The notes under the pieces: model-generated
What the model was told of the DNA's origin: nothing
Seen by the model: only the letters and a program-made list of their open reading frames with translations
Database searches by the model: none
Assembly: GCF_017301615.1 (NCBI RefSeq)
Contig: NZ_CP059066.1
Location: 2,153,001-2,217,000, forward strand
Length of the DNA stretch: 64,000 nt
Reading direction: 5' to 3'
DNA from: Koleobacter methoxysyntrophicus
Lineage (GTDB): Bacteria > Bacillota > Thermosediminibacteria > Koleobacterales > Koleobacteraceae
Part shown: piece by piece, positions 653 through 9,610 of the stretch
Layout of the letters: every line of letters starts with the position of its first letter
How positions within the stretch are numbered: position 1 is the first letter of the stretch
Translations under genes and position numbers: made by a program

Positions 653-2632
653 TTACGAACGATTTGCAGAGCCTTGATTTGAAAGGGTTTCAAAATGCAA
701 AATATTTCGCTTGTATTCACTGTACAGAGCCTTTAATTCATTTATTTTAGATGACATTTCCAGTTGAAGTTTAGATACGGTGCTGTAATCCTTTGCGGAA
801 ATAGCTGTTTTGATTTTAGAAAATAGAGATTTTGTATTAGATGTGTCTTTTAAGAGATAGAGTTTCAGATCATTAATTTTATTCCAGCGTTCTTTATCAA
901 GGGAGTTTTCTTCTTCATCGTGTAAACGAATACATGAGCGAACTAATTCTATATTTTCCGGTATTATCCTATCTCGCAATTCCATAACCCATCGATGGAG
1001 CATAGCATGGGTATAGGAATTTATCAATTTTTGTGTAAATACATTGCCATGTTTTAGCACCTCTGTCTTTTCGGGGAATTTGTTTAGGTTTTCAACTGCT
1101 TCCCAGACGGTAGCCGGGGGAGTACCGAAGAGCTTATTTCTTTCTTCAGGAGTATAGTACTCAAAAACATCCTCTTCACTCCGGTAAGCCCTGTCTTTTT
1201 CAAGGTAATCGCTTTCCTCACCGGGTTTTTTAGAGAATTCCTTTTCCAGTTCTTCAGAGGTTTTGCCGCTTTTTGCTGCATATCCGATCCCATCAATCAT
1301 TGACTGATAAATAGCTGCAAGGGCTAGATATGTGTTTGTATGGGGGTTTGGGGAACGCACTTCAAAACGGGTAGCCAGTGGGTTTGACTTATCCCGTATT
1401 AAACCTACAAGGACAGTTCTGTTTCTCGACGGCATATTAACAGAATGACCTATGGAAGCTACAATACAGACAGGAGCCTCGAATCCCGGTTTCAACCGAT
1501 TAAATGCATTATTGGTGCATGTTATAAATGTCCCTACTACTTCATAGTTTTTCAGTAATCCCATTAGAGCTCCCCAACCTGCAGGGCTTAAATAATCCTT
1601 TTCCGGGTTTATCGGGGTAAAAAGATTTTTTATGCTGCCGTCCTTCATTCTGACCGCAATCCCTACATGAGTATGTTCTCCATTACCTGCAACCCCTTCT
1701 ATCGGTTTTGGCATAAATGTGACTTCCAGACCGTGCTGGCGGAAAACCTCTTTAATGGCGATTCGGGCAAGGAGTTCATTATCTGCTGCCTGCAGGGGAT
1801 AGGAGTATTTCCAATCGATTTCAATTTGTTCCATTACATGGCTGAAACGGCCTTCGCCACCCAGCTGGGCCGTTACACCCCCTACCTCTTTATGCCCCAT
1901 TTCGGGATTCAAACCATACCTTTCAAGCAAAATCAGGGATTTTTCCAGAGATGTCCTTACATTGCCTTTTGTTCTTTTCCAGTACTGTTCCTGAAGGACC
2001 TGGGAGACCGTTAACTGGTCGATGTCTGCCTTATCCCCTGGGGTTTTTACCCAGAATTCCAGCTCAGTGGCTGCGGTTAATACTATATCAACCACATCTT
2101 CTGGATCTATACCAATATTGCGAGCAAAAGACGGATACTCAGAGAGGTATTTTTTGATCTGCTTTTTTGCATTTTCCTGAGCTTTGACAAGTATTGAACG
2201 GGAATCGACCCTTTCACCTCCGTGAACAAGAAAAGACGGAATCCTAAGTGTACCTACGGGCAGGCCCGTCTTTGAGTCTATATGTTCATAATTGTAGTCT
2301 ACGGTCCAGTTAACAGAAGCATCTGCCATTAAATCAACCTTTGCATTATTGATGGTAACAATACCGGGGAGAACTACACTTGAACCGTCTGTCTGGATTC
2401 CTCCGTTCAGGAATTCTTCTATTTCTTTAAAGAATACTGAAATAGGTATTTTTTCATCGGTATCATTACCATCCAGGTCAATACCTACAAGAGAAACGAA
2501 TTTAATCTCGGGGTGATTGTTGAGCAGGTCTTTTATCTTTTCAGGAGTTCTACCTTCAGGTGGAATAAAGTACAGCAGTCTGTCTTCCCAGGATAGATCC
2601 GGTTGTTTAAACAGGTATTTGCTATCAGCCAT
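653..2632 (-). CDS. Glutamine synthetase family protein (long form)
   Basis: Probable ATP-dependent ligase of the glutamine synthetase family, joining ammonia to glutamate in the cytoplasm. Visible signatures are ATELEFWV near residue 188 (metal/substrate-binding strand), NGEHTHVGI near 317 and RFEVRSPNPHTNTYLALA near 422, the counterpart of the RxExRxPDxxxNPYL region. The protein has 659 residues, longer than type I enzymes (about 440-470). The extra length is a charged, helical C-terminal tail, so it is closer in size to type III enzymes. The ATG at 2632 is chosen because GGAGAGGAG lies just upstream; a TTG six codons earlier would put that site inside the gene. No regulator gene is adjacent. 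Confidence 0.85.
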   Translation of the reverse strand: MADSKYLFKQPDLSWEDRLLYFIPPEGRTPEKIKDLLNNHPEIKFVSLVGIDLDGNDTDEKIPISVFFKEIEEFLNGGIQTDGSSVVLPGIVTINNAKVDLMADASVNWTVDYNYEHIDSKTGLPVGTLRIPSFLVHGGERVDSRSILVKAQENAKKQIKKYLSEYPSFARNIGIDPEDVVDIVLTAATELEFWVKTPGDKADIDQLTVSQVLQEQYWKRTKGNVRTSLEKSLILLERYGLNPEMGHKEVGGVTAQLGGEGRFSHVMEQIEIDWKYSYPLQAADNELLARIAIKEVFRQHGLEVTFMPKPIEGVAGNGEHTHVGIAVRMKDGSIKNLFTPINPEKDYLSPAGWGALMGLLKNYEVVGTFITCTNNAFNRLKPGFEAPVCIVASIGHSVNMPSRNRTVLVGLIRDKSNPLATRFEVRSPNPHTNTYLALAAIYQSMIDGIGYAAKSGKTSEELEKEFSKKPGEESDYLEKDRAYRSEEDVFEYYTPEERNKLFGTPPATVWEAVENLNKFPEKTEVLKHGNVFTQKLINSYTHAMLHRWVMELRDRIIPENIELVRSCIRLHDEEENSLDKERWNKINDLKLYLLKDTSNTKSLFSKIKTAISAKDYSTVSKLQLEMSSKINELKALYSEYKRNILHFETLSNQGSANRS

Positions 2633-2754
2633 ATATTTTCTCCTCTCCAAAAAAACTATTTATTTAATTTTATATTAACTATTTTTACAAATCAAGCACC
2701 GGCTGCTACCTACTTAAATTTTACACTGCCCTTGAGTTTATTTTTGACAGGGGG

Positions 2755-2790
2755 AAAAACAATTAAAGCGGGGTATATAGTCCCCACTTT
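2755..2790 (-). terminator. Rho-independent terminator after the coat gene pair
   Basis: On the minus strand AAAG-T-GGGG and CCCC-G-CTTT form a stem around an ACTATATA loop, followed by AATTGTTTTT. It lies just past the CotF-type gene stop. Confidence 0.7.
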
Positions 2791-2812
2791 AGTTGTCCGG
2801 TAATGTAATTAA

Positions 2813-3178
2813 TTAATGGGTTATATCCTGAAAAGGAAACTGGGTTTTGTAATTTTCAAACTGTTGTTGAACCTGCTGTATTTCCTGCCTTTCGGCACCT
2901 TGCAGTGAATACCAACCCTTTTTAAACATCAGGTTAAATATTTCTCTTGTGCATTGATGGGTTTCGGCGAGGATCTTGTTGAGGTCACCATAGAGGTTAA
3001 TGTGGCTTGCTTCCCTAACAAATATATTTAGATTTTCCGTAAGATATTTTTCCGTTGAAAGGGCATCATTGAGGAAGTCCCTGTCATTCATTTCAGGGCC
3101 TTTTACATTTTGCAAACCACTTTGAGGGTTTTTAATTTCTCTTCTGTTTTGCTGGTTTTGCTGTTGCTGATAATCCAT
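2813..3178 (-). CDS. Spore coat protein, CotF family
   Basis: A 121-residue protein with a Gln-rich N-terminus (residues 1-30) followed by a CotF-type coat domain. The domain is marked by MNDRDFLNDALSTEKYLTEN near residue 31 and ETHQCTREIFNLMFKKGWY near 70-90. The family is helical and ferritin-like and associates with the spore coat. GGAGGT lies six bases before the ATG. It is the second gene of a pair, 15 bases after its upstream neighbour, and a terminator follows it. Confidence 0.85.
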   Translation of the reverse strand: MDYQQQQNQQNRREIKNPQSGLQNVKGPEMNDRDFLNDALSTEKYLTENLNIFVREASHINLYGDLNKILAETHQCTREIFNLMFKKGWYSLQGAERQEIQQVQQQFENYKTQFPFQDITH

Positions 3179-3193
3179 GTTTATACCTCCAAT

Positions 3194-3454
3194 CTATGAA
3201 ATTGATTTCTTTACATCTACATGTTTTAAGAGTATTTCATAATGCTTTTGGTGCATTTTACCTGCCCTTTCCAGGATGTTCCTTACTTCTGCATCACTGC
3301 ATTCCCTGGCAAAATGATAACATTTTTTCATTGCCGTAAGTTCCCATGACATAGCGTCCTTCAAATATGCCAGATCTTTTGTAGTAATGATTTCAGGGGG
3401 CTGGTCCATTACCCTTGTTTGGGCGGTTTGGCCTTGAGTTTCCATGTATTCCAT
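3194..3454 (-). CDS. Small coat-associated helical protein (CotF-like partner)
   Basis: An 86-residue protein whose core (TTKDLAYLKDAMSWELTAMK, then HFARECSDAEVRNILERAG and MHQKHYEILL) reads as a short ferritin-like two-helix unit, as seen in small spore coat proteins paired with CotF homologues. The start at 3454 is set by AAAGGAGG nine bases upstream; longer readings would include the ribosome site. A CATACTAT motif at 3489-3496 on this strand resembles a mother-cell sigma (E or K) -10 box, but no -35 is clear. Function is inferred from the family and the neighbour. Confidence 0.65.
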   Translation of the reverse strand: MEYMETQGQTAQTRVMDQPPEIITTKDLAYLKDAMSWELTAMKKCYHFARECSDAEVRNILERAGKMHQKHYEILLKHVDVKKSIS

Positions 3455-3565
3455 TATTAATTTCCTCCTTTTCCTGATGTTTTCTTTAATAGTATGGCTG
3501 ATAAACAAGGTTTTAATGTGTAAATTTAGTTAAAAACAGATTTTTTTAAATATTAAGTTTGGTTT

Positions 3566-3595
3566 TTGATTCTATATGATGATATACTATATAAT
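3566..3595 (+). promoter_or_regulatory. Sigma-A-type promoter for the zinc-ribbon/DUF2007 gene
   Basis: TTGATT (3566-3571) and TATAAT (3590-3595) are separated by 18 bases, about 50 bases upstream of the ATG at 3643. Confidence 0.5.
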
Positions 3596-3642
3596 AAGTT
3601 ACTTCCTTTAAATTTCTAAATTTCTAGAACGGGGGAAAGATA

Positions 3643-3981
3643 ATGCCTTTTTGCCCTAAGTGCAAAGCCGAGTACAGAAAAGGCTTTAAAATCTGTGCCG
3701 ACTGTAATGAAAAGTTAGTAGATGTTCTGGAAGAAGATAAAAAAAATGACTATAAAAATAGGAGTGAGAAATGGGTATATTTAATGAGTACATATAATGA
3801 TTTGGAGGCCGATATTGTTATCGGATTATTAAACAATTATGGGATTAAAGCAATAAAACAGTATTCGGGGCCTTACCAGTATTTAAAGGTATATATGGGT
3901 ACTGCCTTTAATGTAAAAATCCTTGTTCCTGAATCCCTTTTAAATCAGGCTAAAGAAATTATTGAGAATACGGTAATTTAA
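3643..3981 (+). CDS. Zinc-ribbon plus DUF2007 (signal-transducing-like) protein
   Basis: A 112-residue cytoplasmic protein. Its N-terminus holds CPKC (residues 4-7) and CADC (17-20), a four-Cys zinc ribbon. The rest (VYLMSTYNDLEADIVIGLL, then VKILVPESLLNQAKEII) matches the DUF2007 layout, a small PII-like fold of unknown ligand. GGGGGAAAG precedes the ATG. It appears to have its own promoter and is followed after 68 bases by the DUF815 ATPase. The biological role is unknown. Confidence 0.7.
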   Translation: MPFCPKCKAEYRKGFKICADCNEKLVDVLEEDKKNDYKNRSEKWVYLMSTYNDLEADIVIGLLNNYGIKAIKQYSGPYQYLKVYMGTAFNVKILVPESLLNQAKEIIENTVI

Positions 3982-4049
3982 TTCCTGATCCTTCAAGACA
4001 TTAGTTTTAGTCAAAATTAAATCAAGGAAAAGGGAAAGGGGTAATTCGT

Positions 4050-5456
4050 ATGCCGGTCCTAAGTAAAGACCATATTTATTCTATATATCTGGGGATAAAA
4101 TGTTTAGTGGTTTTTAGAGATGTAACAAAATATGATGCCCTGTTTAAAAAATTCAACGCTTTTCTGGAAATTATCTTGAAAAAAGATTCATCTGTCGAAG
4201 AACTGCTGGATTCCTATTCCTCATTTGTAAACAGATTATTCAAAATTAAAGAAGAAGCTTTAGATCGGGATTCAGGGGATATATGGCAAAACCACATACT
4301 AAACACCATATTGTCCGATGAAAACATTTTTTCATTAAAGGCCGAGTCGGGGAAAATAGGAAGTCTAGAATCACCTCTAGTTAATAATTTCAAAAATGAT
4401 TTGCTTCTTCTCCAGCAAATCTATAAGGATTTTTCATTACCCAATATTGAGAAGGCTGTTAAAGAAAAAATATCGAAAATATTACTGGATTCAGATAGTG
4501 ATAATGTAATAAAAAATCAAATATCTGCCTTTCTTCCTAGCATAGACAGGGTAATACCTGAATCTGAAAATAGGTTTCTGAACTTTTATCTTGAAGAGTC
4601 TAATAATATAAAAAGGGTTTTAGCTTCCTCTTCTGATTGGCGAAATAACGTGGAAGCCTTAGTAGATTTTTACAGAAATGTAGGCTGCGGGAAATTGGGC
4701 AGGTTTCTTGCCTTTAAATGGGTGAGGAGGCAGAAAGGGGGTTATTTAGCAGGAATCCCCAACCCGGATCCTATTCGTCTTGAAGATTTAATAGGATATG
4801 AAGAGCAGAGAACCGAGGTTGTAAGGAATACACAGCAATTTGTAAAGGGCTATCCTGCAAATAATATGCTTCTTTATGGGGATAGGGGAACAGGTAAATC
4901 CTCAACAATTAAAGCCCTCATTCACAAATTTGGTATAAATGGCCTGAGATTGATTCAGGTTTCAAAAGATAGCCTGGCTGATCTGCCTGATATTCTTGAA
5001 GTAATCAGGGAGCGGCCTTATAGATTCATCATATTTATTGATGACTTGTCTTTTGAAGAATATGAGACAGAGTATAAGTATTTAAAAGCAGTGTTAGAAG
5101 GAAATTTAGAAGCAAAACCCGATAATGTCGTGATATATGCCACATCCAACCGCAGACACCTGGTTAAAGAATTTTTATCCGATGTAGAAAAAACAGGGGA
5201 AATAAGAGCTCAGGATACCGTCCAGGAGAAGCTTTCTCTGTCAGATAGATTCGGAATTACGGTAATATTCCCTACACCGGACCAGGAAACTTATCTGAAA
5301 ATTGTAGAAGGTCTTGCAGAACAGAAGAAACTGAATATAGAAAAAGATAAATTGCGAAAATTAGCTCTTCAATGGGAAATATGGCATAATGAGCGGTCAG
5401 GCAGAACGGCAAAACAGTTTATTGACGACTTGCAAGGAAAGTTAGGTTTATATTGA
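4050..5456 (+). CDS. AAA-type ATP-binding protein, DUF815 family
   Basis: A 468-residue protein. The N-terminal 240 residues are helical and poorly conserved. The AAA-type ATPase core follows: EEQRTEVVRNTQQFV before the P-loop, Walker A GDRGTGKS near residues 277-284, Walker B FIIFIDDLSF near 326-335 and the sensor-like VVIYATSNRRHL. This combination is typical of DUF815 ATPases, which are widespread in Clostridia and of unknown substrate. GGGAAAGGGG precedes the ATG. No partner gene is obvious. Confidence 0.8.
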   Translation: MPVLSKDHIYSIYLGIKCLVVFRDVTKYDALFKKFNAFLEIILKKDSSVEELLDSYSSFVNRLFKIKEEALDRDSGDIWQNHILNTILSDENIFSLKAESGKIGSLESPLVNNFKNDLLLLQQIYKDFSLPNIEKAVKEKISKILLDSDSDNVIKNQISAFLPSIDRVIPESENRFLNFYLEESNNIKRVLASSSDWRNNVEALVDFYRNVGCGKLGRFLAFKWVRRQKGGYLAGIPNPDPIRLEDLIGYEEQRTEVVRNTQQFVKGYPANNMLLYGDRGTGKSSTIKALIHKFGINGLRLIQVSKDSLADLPDILEVIRERPYRFIIFIDDLSFEEYETEYKYLKAVLEGNLEAKPDNVVIYATSNRRHLVKEFLSDVEKTGEIRAQDTVQEKLSLSDRFGITVIFPTPDQETYLKIVEGLAEQKKLNIEKDKLRKLALQWEIWHNERSGRTAKQFIDDLQGKLGLY

Positions 5457-5555
5457 ATATACAATGGGATTTTCTTTGATAATTTTAGAAATATTAATTA
5501 GACAAATGGGGGAACATATTATTATAAAGTAAACTTTAAAGGAGGCAGATTGGAT

Positions 5556-5753
5556 ATGGATATTCGAAGCGTAATACTCAATAATATGAAAGGCAAATCA
5601 AAGGAGGAAATAAGGGGTTTTATTCAGGATGCTGTTGATAAAAAAGAAGAACTGGCCCTTCCGGGAATGGGTATTCTTTTTGAAACTATGTGGCAGAAAA
5701 GCAGTGAAGAACAAAAGAATACATTGATGGACTGGTTGGTAAAGGCTATTTGA
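5556..5753 (+). CDS. sspI: Small acid-soluble spore protein, SspI type
   Basis: A 65-residue protein resembling Bacillus SspI, with the central LPGMGILFETMWQKSS aligning to the family's LPGLGVLFEVIWQ block and a following EEQKNTLMDWL. SspI-type proteins are minor acid-soluble proteins made in the forespore late in sporulation. The ATG at 5556 has GGAGG ten bases upstream; a TTG six bases earlier is only four bases from it and looks less likely. CATATTA at 5515-5521 fits a sigma-G -10 box, but no -35 partner is at the right distance. Confidence 0.8.
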   Translation: MDIRSVILNNMKGKSKEEIRGFIQDAVDKKEELALPGMGILFETMWQKSSEEQKNTLMDWLVKAI

Positions 5754-5783
5754 GATATCTTATTCAGCCATGAATCACATAAG

Positions 5784-5829
5784 ATGGGCCTTTTTCCAAA
5801 ATGGGAGTAATAAAAAAGGCTCATTTTTT
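5784..5829 (+). terminator. Rho-independent terminator after sspI
   Basis: ATGGGCCTTTTT (5784-5795) pairs with AAAAAGGCTCAT (5813-5824) with one G-T pair, followed by TTTTT. Confidence 0.8.
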
Positions 5830-5834
5830 ATTTG

Positions 5835-6000
5835 AGTTTATCCTGCAAAGAACCATGGCGGCGTGGAGGACAGTGGCTGTTGCACTTTATAATACATATC
5901 ATGAGATATGGAAAGCAGTGCATCACTTAAAAGCGACAGTCGATTTAAGAGAATATGAAGGCTTTTCCGGACACCGGGGGCCAGTTGCCTGATTATTAAC
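5835..6000. other. Unexplained intergenic stretch, more G+C-rich than its flanks
   Basis: Between the sspI terminator and the ATP-grasp gene. It contains an open frame from ATG 5854 (45 codons, beginning MAAWRTVAVALYNTYH) but no ribosome site near it, and no RNA family I recognise. The base composition differs visibly from the AT-rich flanks. Confidence 0.3.
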
Positions 6001-6077: not shown

Positions 6078-7076
6078 ATGTATAACATAGGATTAACTTA
6101 TAATCTAAGAAAAGGGGTAAATAATGCAGTTGAAGATGAAGAAGCTGAATTAGATGACTGGCAGACCGTAGAAGACATTAAAAAAGCTATTGAATCTCTG
6201 GGTTGCAATGTTATACTTTTGGAAGCTACAGGGGATATAATTTATGAAATACCAAAATATAAAATCGATATTGTATTCAATTTTGCCGAGGGGTTAAAAG
6301 GCCGAGGAAGGGAAGCTCAAATACCTGCTTTATTAAACCTTTTAAAAATCCCTTTTACCGGCTCAGACGAAACAACTTTAGGAGTAGCTTTGGACAAAGC
6401 ACTTGCAAAAAAGATAGTTTCATATTCAGGTATCAAAACCCCTAAATTTCAGCTTTTTTTTAGTCCAAATGAAAAATTAAAAAAGACCTTAAAATTTCCT
6501 TTAATAGTAAAACCTAATGCTGAAGGTTCCAGCAAAGGGATAAGTGATACAGCTATTGCTGAAAATGAAAAAGAACTAAAGGAACTAATTGAACGTAATA
6601 TTAAAAACTATAATCAATCAGCCCTAGTTGAGGAATTTATAAAAGGAAGGGAATTTACCATAGGCCTAATAGGCAACAGAGATTCTCTAGAAATATTACC
6701 AATAATGGAAATAATATTTAAAAACACCCCTACTAAATACAATTTTTATAGTTATAAAGTAAAAAAAGAATCCAGCAAATTCATAAAATACGTGTGTCCT
6801 GCAAAACTGTTACCCCAGGAAGAAAGGAAAATAAAGAGATTCGGACAGAGGATTTTCAATGCCTTGCAATGCCAGGATGTTGCACGGATAGATTTAAGGC
6901 TGTCTGAAGAAGATAATGAACCTTACTTTCTTGAAATAAATCCCTTACCGGGTCTGGTGAAGGGATATAGCGACCTGCCTTTAATAGCTGAATCGATCGG
7001 GATATCATATGAGGAACTGATTAAAAAAATCTTGAATGCAGCACTGAAAAGGTATAATATGAAAGAGATCTGCTGA
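6078..7076 (+). CDS. ATP-grasp ligase of the D-alanine-D-alanine ligase family
   Basis: A 332-residue cytoplasmic ligase of the D-Ala-D-Ala ligase type. Visible blocks are VFNFAEGLKGRGREAQIPALL near residue 71-91 (substrate entry), PLIVKPNAEGSSKGI near 141-155 (ATP-binding loop), VEEFIKGREFTIG near 183-195, and the metal-binding ARIDLRLSEED followed by PYFLEINPLPGL. True Ddl enzymes share all of these, but many relatives use other amino acids, and the gene is far from the mur cluster. GGGGGAATA precedes the ATG. A terminator follows. Confidence 0.75.
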   Translation: MYNIGLTYNLRKGVNNAVEDEEAELDDWQTVEDIKKAIESLGCNVILLEATGDIIYEIPKYKIDIVFNFAEGLKGRGREAQIPALLNLLKIPFTGSDETTLGVALDKALAKKIVSYSGIKTPKFQLFFSPNEKLKKTLKFPLIVKPNAEGSSKGISDTAIAENEKELKELIERNIKNYNQSALVEEFIKGREFTIGLIGNRDSLEILPIMEIIFKNTPTKYNFYSYKVKKESSKFIKYVCPAKLLPQEERKIKRFGQRIFNALQCQDVARIDLRLSEEDNEPYFLEINPLPGLVKGYSDLPLIAESIGISYEELIKKILNAALKRYNMKEIC

Positions 7077-7079
7077 CTA

Positions 7080-7110
7080 TAGAGAGGTTTAAAACCCCTC
7101 TATTTTGCTT
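7080..7110 (+). terminator. Rho-independent terminator after the ATP-grasp gene
   Basis: TAGAGAGGTTT pairs with AAACCCCTCTA across one A-C mismatch, followed by TTTTGCTTTT. Confidence 0.6.
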
Positions 7111-7243
7111 TTAGGGTATATATTAAAAGAAAAATGAAAAAGAAGGGCTTAAATAAGTCAATTATGTAGGAAATAAATAATCCTTCTCGAATATATATAA
7201 AAAATATATATAAATACAATTATTGAACATAAAGGTGATTTAT

Positions 7244-7591
7244 GTGATTAAAGAATTGCTTTTATCCTTAATGAATCGTTTGGGAATGCTAATGATGCTG
7301 GCTCTATTCCTATCTCGAACAAAGCTGTTTAAAAGACTTGTTACTAAACAGAATATTACATTTCAAGAAAAACTTATGTTGACACTGATTTTCGGCATTC
7401 TTGGGTCTTTGGGGAGTTATTTCAGTATCAGTTTCCATGGGGCTCTTGTTAATACGAGGATAATAGGGGTAGCTGCCGGCGGTTTATTGGGAGGGCCGTT
7501 AGTCGGGTTTGGAGCCGGGCTTTTAGCAGGGGTCCATCGATGGTTTATTGACATCGGCGGATCGTTTCACCTATTTCACCACATTATTTAA
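7244..7591 (+). pseudogene. LytS-type 5TM sensor, truncated N-terminal fragment
   Basis: The 115 residues read as the membrane domain of a LytS-type sensor (5TM-5TMR_LYT): NRLGMLMMLALFLSRTKLFK, then EKLMLTLIFGILGSLGSY and VNTRIIGVAAGGLLGGPLVG followed by GLLAGVHRW. In intact relatives the text goes on to the last membrane helices, a GAF domain and a histidine kinase. Here the similarity stops after HRWFIDIGG and the frame closes about ten codons later. The GTG at 7244 is chosen because AAAGGTGA lies five bases upstream. Without a kinase part it cannot signal in the usual way; it is best read as a broken gene. Confidence 0.65.
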
Positions 7592-7674
7592 AAATAAATG
7601 GACAAAGATACAACCTTGTAGAGATTGCAGGTGAATGGGCACAGATAAAAATATATCCGGCAAGGAGGGATTGA
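7561..7674 (+). pseudogene. C-terminal remnant of a DUF1850-like, TRAP-associated protein
   Basis: In the frame ending at TGA 7672-7674, the text YLKINGQRYNLVEIAGEWA continues to the stop. It resembles the C-terminus of DUF1850 proteins, which sit directly upstream of fused TRAP permeases and end in a pattern like LxINGKxYxLxEYxxxGxWxxI. The frame differs from that of the LytS fragment and has no start of its own: it opens after a stop at 7549-7551. The remnant ends two bases before the TRAP permease ATG. The DUF1850 assignment is from memory of the family pattern. Confidence 0.5.
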
Positions 7675-7675
7675 A

Positions 7676-9610
7676 ATGAAAAAAAAAAACAGGGAAGAAC
7701 TTATTGAATCGACTATTAAGAAATACGATAGAAGTGAAAGGACCAGAGATCTTACAGGGCTTTTAAAAATCCTTTTAACGTTTATAGCCGTGGGAATGTC
7801 ATTATATCATTTATATACTGCCCGTTACGGGACCCCTATAGCTATTATACACAGATCCATTCACGTGAGTTTCATTTTAGTAATGGTGTTTTTACTCTAT
7901 CCCCCTTTTAGAAAGAACAATGTATTATTTAGAATAATTGATGGTATTTTAATAATATTATCTATAATACCAAGTTGCTATCTAATAACCCAATATAAAG
8001 AAATTGTTTTGCGGGCAGGTATGCCCAATAAAACCGACCTTATTCTAGCAGGTTTGATTATTCTACTGGTCCTTGAAGCAGCAAGAAGGGTTATGGGATG
8101 GGTTTTGCCAGCCCTTTCAATATTATTTTTACTGTATGGTTATTACGGCAGTTATTTCATAGGGAGGTTAAGTCACAGAGGGTTTTCTTTTGATGAAATT
8201 TTTGAATATATGTACCTGACTACAGAGGGGATCTATGGTGTGCCCATAGGGGTTTCAGCTCAATACCTGATACTATTTATTCTATTCGGAGCATTTTTGT
8301 TGAAGTCGGGGGTAGGAGACTTCTTCAATGACCTTGCTATAGCCATTGCGGGTCAAAGCAAAGGTGGACCGGCCCAGGTTGCGGTAATATCCAGCGGATT
8401 CATGGGTTCAATAAATGGGTCGGCTGTTGCTAATGTAGTTACTACCGGAACATTTACCATACCCCTTATGAAAAGGATCGGATATTCGCCGGAATTCGCC
8501 GGTGGGGTAGAAGCAGCTGCATCCTGCGGTGGTCAGATATTGCCCCCTGTTATGGGTGCAGCAGCCTTCATCATGGCCGAAACCTTAGGAATTAAATACG
8601 TAAATATAATGTATGCAGCTATTATTCCCGCCCTTTTATACTACGGTTCAGCATTGACGATGGTCTATTTGAGAGCATCTCATCGAAACCTGAGGGGATT
8701 GGATCAATCGGAAGTTCCCAATTTGTGGGTTCTCATAAAGAAAAAATTCTACCTTTTTACTCCTATGGTTGTGCTTGTATATTTGCTTGTAAGAGGATAT
8801 ACACCAACATATGCAGCATTTTTTGCAATAATAACCTCTGTTCTAGTTAGCTGGATCAAACCAGAGACAAGGATGACACCCAAAAAAATAATTGAAGCCC
8901 TTGAAATGGGAGCAAGAAACACGATTAGTGTTGCTGTTCCGTGTGCTGTAGTGGGTATTATTGTCGGTATTTCAACCCTAACGGGATTCGGTTCTAAAAT
9001 TGCCGGTTCAATAATAAGCTGGTCTGGCGGGTCGCTGTTTTTAACCCTTTTCTTTACAATGATAGCCTGCATTGTACTGGGCTTGGGTATGCCATCTATT
9101 CCCGCATATATACTGACGGCTACCATGGCAGCCCCAGCCCTTGCCAGGATGGGGGTACCCCCTCTTGCTTCTCATTTCTTCGTATTCTATTTTGCTATGA
9201 TGGCGAATGTTACTCCTCCCGTTGCTCTTGCAGCCTTTGCGGCGTCGGGAATTTCAGGGGGAGATATAAATAAGACGGGTTATGAAGCCTTTAAGCTGGC
9301 CCTTGCCGGATTTTTAATACCTTATATGTTTGTTTACAGCCCCGCACTGCTTGGAATAGAGACGACTTTTGGCGGGATATTAGTAGTGGCAATTACAGCG
9401 ATGATAGGAGTGATAGCCCTTGCAGGTGCTGTAGAAGGATATCTCTTAATAGAAGCAAAACTATACCAGAGACTTATATTGTTAGCTGCAGCTTTTACCC
9501 TGATTAAACCGGGAGGAATGACCGACATAATAGGCTTCCTTTTGATAGGGATTGTAATAGTTTTGCAATTAGTAACCAAAAGAAGTAGCAATAAAAGTAA
9601 TTCCCTTTAA
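7676..9610 (+). CDS. TRAP transporter permease, fused 4TM/12TM type
   Basis: A 644-residue polytopic membrane protein in which the small (DctQ-like) and large (DctM-like) TRAP permease subunits are joined. The large-subunit part shows GFMGSINGSAVANVVTTGTF near residue 240-262, ASCGGQILPPVMGAAAF near 281-297 and LGLGMPSIPAYILTATMAAP near 462-482. This type is normally driven by an ion gradient and fed by a TAXI-family solute-binding protein. No such gene is next to it; only a fragment of the usual upstream DUF1850 gene remains. AAGGAGGG lies six bases before the ATG. The substrate is unknown. Confidence 0.88.
   Translation: MKKKNREELIESTIKKYDRSERTRDLTGLLKILLTFIAVGMSLYHLYTARYGTPIAIIHRSIHVSFILVMVFLLYPPFRKNNVLFRIIDGILIILSIIPSCYLITQYKEIVLRAGMPNKTDLILAGLIILLVLEAARRVMGWVLPALSILFLLYGYYGSYFIGRLSHRGFSFDEIFEYMYLTTEGIYGVPIGVSAQYLILFILFGAFLLKSGVGDFFNDLAIAIAGQSKGGPAQVAVISSGFMGSINGSAVANVVTTGTFTIPLMKRIGYSPEFAGGVEAAASCGGQILPPVMGAAAFIMAETLGIKYVNIMYAAIIPALLYYGSALTMVYLRASHRNLRGLDQSEVPNLWVLIKKKFYLFTPMVVLVYLLVRGYTPTYAAFFAIITSVLVSWIKPETRMTPKKIIEALEMGARNTISVAVPCAVVGIIVGISTLTGFGSKIAGSIISWSGGSLFLTLFFTMIACIVLGLGMPSIPAYILTATMAAPALARMGVPPLASHFFVFYFAMMANVTPPVALAAFAASGISGGDINKTGYEAFKLALAGFLIPYMFVYSPALLGIETTFGGILVVAITAMIGVIALAGAVEGYLLIEAKLYQRLILLAAAFTLIKPGGMTDIIGFLLIGIVIVLQLVTKRSSNKSNSL

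What the first reader, a model, noticed from the sequence alone, without database searches (positions are those of the whole stretch)
7244..7674. Deletion scar: LytS-type sensor fused end-to-end with a DUF1850 tail beside a TRAP permease
Seen: the N-terminal membrane part of a LytS-type sensor stops abruptly near 7,560, and from about 7,561 another frame reads as the C-terminus of a DUF1850-like protein that ends two bases before the fused TRAP permease. Known: DUF1850 genes normally stand directly before such permeases, after a TAXI solute-binding gene. Inference: one deletion removed the rest of the sensor, probably the solute-binding gene, and most of DUF1850, leaving a TRAP permease without its binding protein. 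The permease is then either a relic or fed by a receptor encoded elsewhere.
Basis: partly seen in the sequence, partly recalled or inferred. Interest (0 to 1): 0.55.

Follow-up and report, generated by a model that had tools for sequence, protein, structure and literature searches.

The report
Recent deletion strands a TRAP permease
A single deletion of a few thousand bases fused the beginning of a membrane sensor gene to the last codons of a small helper gene, removing a regulator and the binding protein of a nutrient transporter; it is a clear but ordinary gene-loss scar.

Summary
Bases 7244-7561 encode the first 106 residues of a LytS-type sensor (Pfam 5TM-5TMR_LYT, 79 of 169 positions). 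From 7561 another frame encodes the last 37 residues of a DUF1850 protein, ending one base (not two) before the TAXI-type fused TRAP permease. Pfam misses so short a tail, and equally misses the same tail cut from a true DUF1850. A profile of four close homologues finds it at 1.8e-11, first among 1733 frames of the window.

Relatives show the undeleted order: LytS, LytT-type regulator, TAXI binding protein, DUF1850, permease (L036, L031). All five close orthologues have TAXI and DUF1850 upstream; none has the compact form. The genome holds only two TAXI proteins, each beside its own permease, so no orphan receptor was found, nor a moved copy of the missing part.

Permease and sensor stub show no excess of changes, so the deletion is probably recent, and the intact permease is no proof of function. 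Most likely: a stranded, unregulated permease at the start of decay. The kind is ordinary. An assembly error is not excluded.

The parts
7244..7561 (+). 5' remnant of a LytS-type sensor gene (106 codons, first part of the 5TM domain; GTG start inferred)
   Evidence: PF07694 82.7 bits, profile 1-79/169; 68.6% to LytS of L036 residues 26-130
7562..7591 (+). out-of-frame read-through of the LytS stub into the DUF1850 tail, 9 codons and stop
   Evidence: translation; no counterpart in intact LytS proteins
7558..7563 (.). deletion junction: last LytS codon GGA 7559-7561, first DUF1850-like codon ATC 7561-7563
7561..7674 (+). 3' remnant of a DUF1850 gene (37 codons and stop TGA); carries the permease's Shine-Dalgarno-like AAGGAGG at 7662-7668
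   Evidence: four-sequence profile 40.5 bits, E 1.8e-11, first of 1733 frames; sequence
7676..9610 (+). intact fused TRAP permease of the TAXI type, 644 aa
   Evidence: TIGR02123 TRAP_fused 746.7 bits, cut-off 320.65; PF06808 313 bits

Best explanation
One illegitimate deletion of about 3.6-3.7 kb joined codon 106 of a lytS gene to the last 37 codons of a DUF1850 gene. It removed the kinase part of the sensor, its LytTR response regulator, the TAXI solute-binding protein and about the first three quarters of DUF1850 (shown by comparison with relatives). It spared the likely ribosome-binding site of the permease, which lies in the DUF1850 tail, so the permease can still be translated, now on a message that starts before lytS or not at all (inferred). 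Without a partner receptor it should not carry out TRAP-type uptake (inferred from published biochemistry of other, DctP-type systems). The stub, tail and permease are all still clean, so the event is probably recent and the locus is at the start of decay (inferred).
For: Undeleted order in L036 and L031, Pfam names of its members. The stretch between the two homologous break points is 3716 nt in L036 and 3634 nt in L031 (worked out from coordinates). TAXI and DUF1850 stand upstream of the permease in all 5 distinct close orthologues (L036, L037=G062, L038=G104, L031=G005, G137). In the 43 loci, 39 have a TAXI gene within about 600 nt upstream; 3 of the other 4 are cut off by the contig end, and L053 has one downstream only. 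Own genome: two TAXI genes over the PF16868 cut-off, each next to its own fused permease, one other DUF1850; the best LytS and LytT hits elsewhere are one paralogous pair at 2.82 Mb, 51% and 46% to L036. Private changes at sites where the relatives agree: permease 13 of 311, same as L036 (13 of 311); LytS stub 2 of 27, same as L036.
Against: No genome of the same genus was found, so the ancestral copy and the exact break points are inferred from relatives of 64-72% permease identity. The age is inferred only from absence of decay. That the permease is useless without a receptor is taken from work on DctP-type systems.
Confidence: 0.87

Rival explanations
1. Assembly error: a misjoin or a minority variant was written into the consensus, and the organism still carries the whole operon.
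For: No reads or second assembly are available; the join is clean, as a misjoin would be.
Against: The genome is one contig with 100% completeness; no direct repeat of 12 or more bases at the junction was reported in window 6900-7900, and the lost genes have no other copy in the assembly.
Confidence: 0.06
2. The compact locus is kept by selection: the permease works with one of the two other TAXI proteins of the genome, or as a receptor-independent carrier, expressed from the former lytS promoter.
For: The permease is intact with no excess of private changes, and its likely ribosome-binding site is spared. Two TAXI proteins exist in the genome.
Against: Those two are only 36-37% identical to the orthologous TAXI of L036 and have their own permeases; a review reports that even a homologous SiaP from another species did not replace the native one (PMC5812351 section 8). 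The LytS stub, which cannot work as a kinase, is equally undecayed, so recency explains the intact permease.
Confidence: 0.06
3. The missing genes were moved elsewhere by inversion or translocation rather than lost.
For: A break inside two genes would also result from a rearrangement.
Against: Whole-genome searches with the LytS, LytT and TAXI proteins of L036 and with PF08905 find only paralogues in other settings.
Confidence: 0.01

Closest known systems
TAXI-TRAP transporter operon with DUF1850 (TIGR02122 receptor, PF08905, TIGR02123 permease)
   Same: Permease is a full member; DUF1850 tail directly before it as in the relatives
   Different: Receptor gene and most of DUF1850 are absent
LytS/LytT two-component system placed before a TAXI-TRAP operon (L036, L031)
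   Same: First 106 codons of LytS at the expected place and orientation
   Different: Kinase part and regulator are absent
Ordinary deletion scars / stranded transporter subunits in bacterial genomes
   Same: One join of two coding sequences out of frame, with flanking genes intact
   Different: Nothing; it is an instance

Membership tests
TAXI-TRAP transporter | single fused membrane component | tested here: met
   TIGR02123 746.7 bits over cut-off 320.65
TAXI-TRAP transporter | TAXI solute-binding protein encoded with it | tested here: not met
   none in the window by a four-sequence TAXI profile; two in the genome, each with another permease
TAXI-TRAP transporter | binding-protein dependent uptake | not testable with these tools
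   needs a transport assay
LytS-type sensor kinase | complete 5TM-5TMR_LYT domain | tested here: not met
   only profile positions 1-79 of 169 remain
LytS-type sensor kinase | His_kinase and ATPase domains | tested here: not met
   frame ends at 7591; both domains present in the intact L036 protein
DUF1850 (PF08905) | match over the Pfam cut-off | tested here: not met
   no Pfam match for the tail; the homologous tail of a true member alone also has none. It is a remnant, not a member gene

The most novel reading that the evidence does not exclude
The permease is still in use without its own receptor: either it borrows a distant TAXI protein of the same cell, or it works as a receptor-free carrier, so that the deletion turned a regulated high-affinity importer into an unregulated one.
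Probability: 0.06. Interest if true: 0.5.

Novelty: new member of a known kind. Interest (0 to 1): 0.2.

Why it matters
It is a clean example of how annotation can mislead: the permease would be annotated as a TRAP transporter although no free receptor for it was found in this genome, and the sensor stub could be called a LytS protein. It also documents a LytS/LytT-headed TAXI-DUF1850-TRAP operon in relatives, which hints at what regulates that poorly studied transporter group.

Tried and rejected
Pfam on the 40-residue tail gave nothing; a positive control showed that this says nothing. A same-genus relative was sought and not found (one same-family genome, G001, whose best permease match is only 48% identical). 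A direct repeat at the junction was sought: the only 13-nt family found (7132/7674) does not lie at the junction. A short overlap of one or two bases (A or AT at 7561-7562) is possible but cannot be tested without a close undeleted copy. Promoter-like and terminator-like sites were not informative: counts are within about 1.5 sd of shuffles, and none on the + strand lies just before 7244. The organism was not identified. Literature: no paper in the library holds 'DUF1850'; one holds 'TRAP transporter', 'LytS' and 'solute-binding protein' together (listing and abstract start only seen). PMC11574862 was seen in passages only.

Full report
What is there. Reading + strand, a D-Ala-D-Ala ligase-like gene (6078-7076) is followed by a GTG start at 7244 with the first 106 codons of a LytS-type sensor, then a join at 7558-7563, then the last 37 codons of a DUF1850 gene in another frame, one spacer base, and a 644-residue fused TRAP permease at 7676-9610. 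The permease is a strong member of TIGR02123 (746.7 bits).

The sensor end. The frame scores 82.7 bits against PF07694 but covers only profile positions 1-79 of 169. Against LytS of L036 the match ends at ...HRWFIDIGG with 68.6% identity. Then nine unrelated residues and a stop follow.

The DUF1850 end. Pfam gave no match to the tail. I therefore tested the method: the same tail cut out of the L036 DUF1850, whose full length scores 61.5 bits, also gets no match. A profile built from four close homologues (L036, L037, L038, L031) finds the tail with 40.5 bits, E 1.8e-11, first among 1733 stop-to-stop frames of at least 20 residues in the window; the second has 8.3 bits, and 20 residue-shuffled sets gave at most 9.9. 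Identity to the four is 42-53% over 38-40 aligned residues (these include two or three non-homologous residues before the junction). The one other DUF1850 of the genome is only 22.5% identical there.

The undeleted order. The nearest permease found in named genomes is in L036 (72%): LytS 1744-3513, LytTR regulator 3519-4310, TAXI 4429-5436, DUF1850 5496-5972, permease from about 5965. The same five genes stand in L031 from genome G005, 66%, though the permease of G005 changes frame near residue 118-151. L037 has the regulator, TAXI and DUF1850, but only a small central piece of LytS. L038 and G137 have TAXI and DUF1850 but no LytS or LytT in the upstream stretches searched. So TAXI and DUF1850 are upstream in 5 of 5 distinct close orthologues, LytT in 3 of 5, a full LytS in 2 of 5. 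G062 and G104 are taken to be the same records as L037 and L038 because contig lengths agree (12734 and 88932). From the homologous break points, the lost stretch corresponds to 3716 nt in L036 and 3634 nt in L031.

How unusual the arrangement is. Among the 43 loci, a TAXI gene stands within about 600 nt upstream of the permease in 39; L055, L073 and L078 are cut off by the contig end, and L053 has one downstream only. In a draw of 398 genomes of the phylum, 8 (own included) have a permease at E up to 1e-200; the upstream stretches fetched for six of the other seven, and L031 for the seventh, all hold a TAXI gene. In one of those six (L115, G067) the DUF1850 match lies on the other strand beyond the permease.

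Is the missing part elsewhere? The genome (one contig, 3,102,782 bases) has two TAXI genes over the family cut-off, at 1.597 and 2.695 Mb, 37% and 36% to the L036 TAXI, each followed by its own fused permease. It has one other DUF1850, in the 2.695 Mb unit. The best LytS and LytT matches elsewhere are a neighbouring pair at 2.82 Mb, 51% and 46% to L036, with a full-length sensor and, by eye, no TRAP gene among the listed ORFs around it. So the piece was lost, not moved, and no orphan receptor was found.

Age and function. At sites where the four relatives agree, the window permease has 13 private changes of 311; L036 has 13 of 311, L037 15 of 313, L038 20 of 318, L031 55 of 353. With L031 left out, it is 31 of 387 for the window against 18 of 374 (L036), 34 of 390 (L037) and 34 of 390 (L038). 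The LytS stub has 2 of 27, as L036 has. The stub cannot act as a kinase, yet is as clean as an intact gene; this points to a recent event, and takes away the force of the intact permease as evidence for function. Other readings of a clean stub (a short useful membrane peptide) are not excluded. A review (PMC5812351, section 8 read in full) states for the DctP-type SiaPQM that the outward-facing cavity opens only with the binding protein and that a homologous binding protein from another species did not replace the native one; the present permease is TAXI-type, so this is an analogy. A 2025 paper (PMC12344293, passages seen) says that orphan TRAP receptors exist but that most are in operons with their membrane partners.

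Mechanism. The junction leaves the last LytS codon GGA at 7559-7561 and the first DUF1850-like codon ATC at 7561-7563, so only a base or two seems to be shared; no longer repeat is seen in the window, but the lost sequence itself is unknown. A small illegitimate deletion is the simplest account. AAGGAGG at 7662-7668, inside the DUF1850 tail, is the likely ribosome-binding site of the permease (read; no test).

Verdict. The finding is real but of an ordinary kind.

Noticed in passing
L037:3141-3476: In a 69%-identical relative the LytS gene before an intact LytT-TAXI-DUF1850-TRAP order is reduced to a short central piece (L036 LytS residues 406-457 match), an apparently separate loss of the same sensor.
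   Followed up: partly
L031:8024-9963 (G005): The orthologous permease in G005 is split into two frames (125 and 512 residues): a frameshift or an assembly error.
   Followed up: partly
L114:6190-7070 (G137): The TAXI gene before the G137 permease changes frame between residues 126 and 127 of the L036 query: a frameshift or an assembly error.
   Followed up: no
L038:3479-4183: In L038 the place before the TAXI gene is taken by a GntR-like regulator (name by eye, not tested) instead of LytS/LytT.
   Followed up: no
L033:790-2539 (genome 1592.8-1594.5 kb): A TnpB-like and a TnpA-like gene of the IS200/IS605 kind (names recalled from the sequence, not tested) lie about 2.5 kb before the second TAXI-TRAP unit of the genome.
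   Followed up: no
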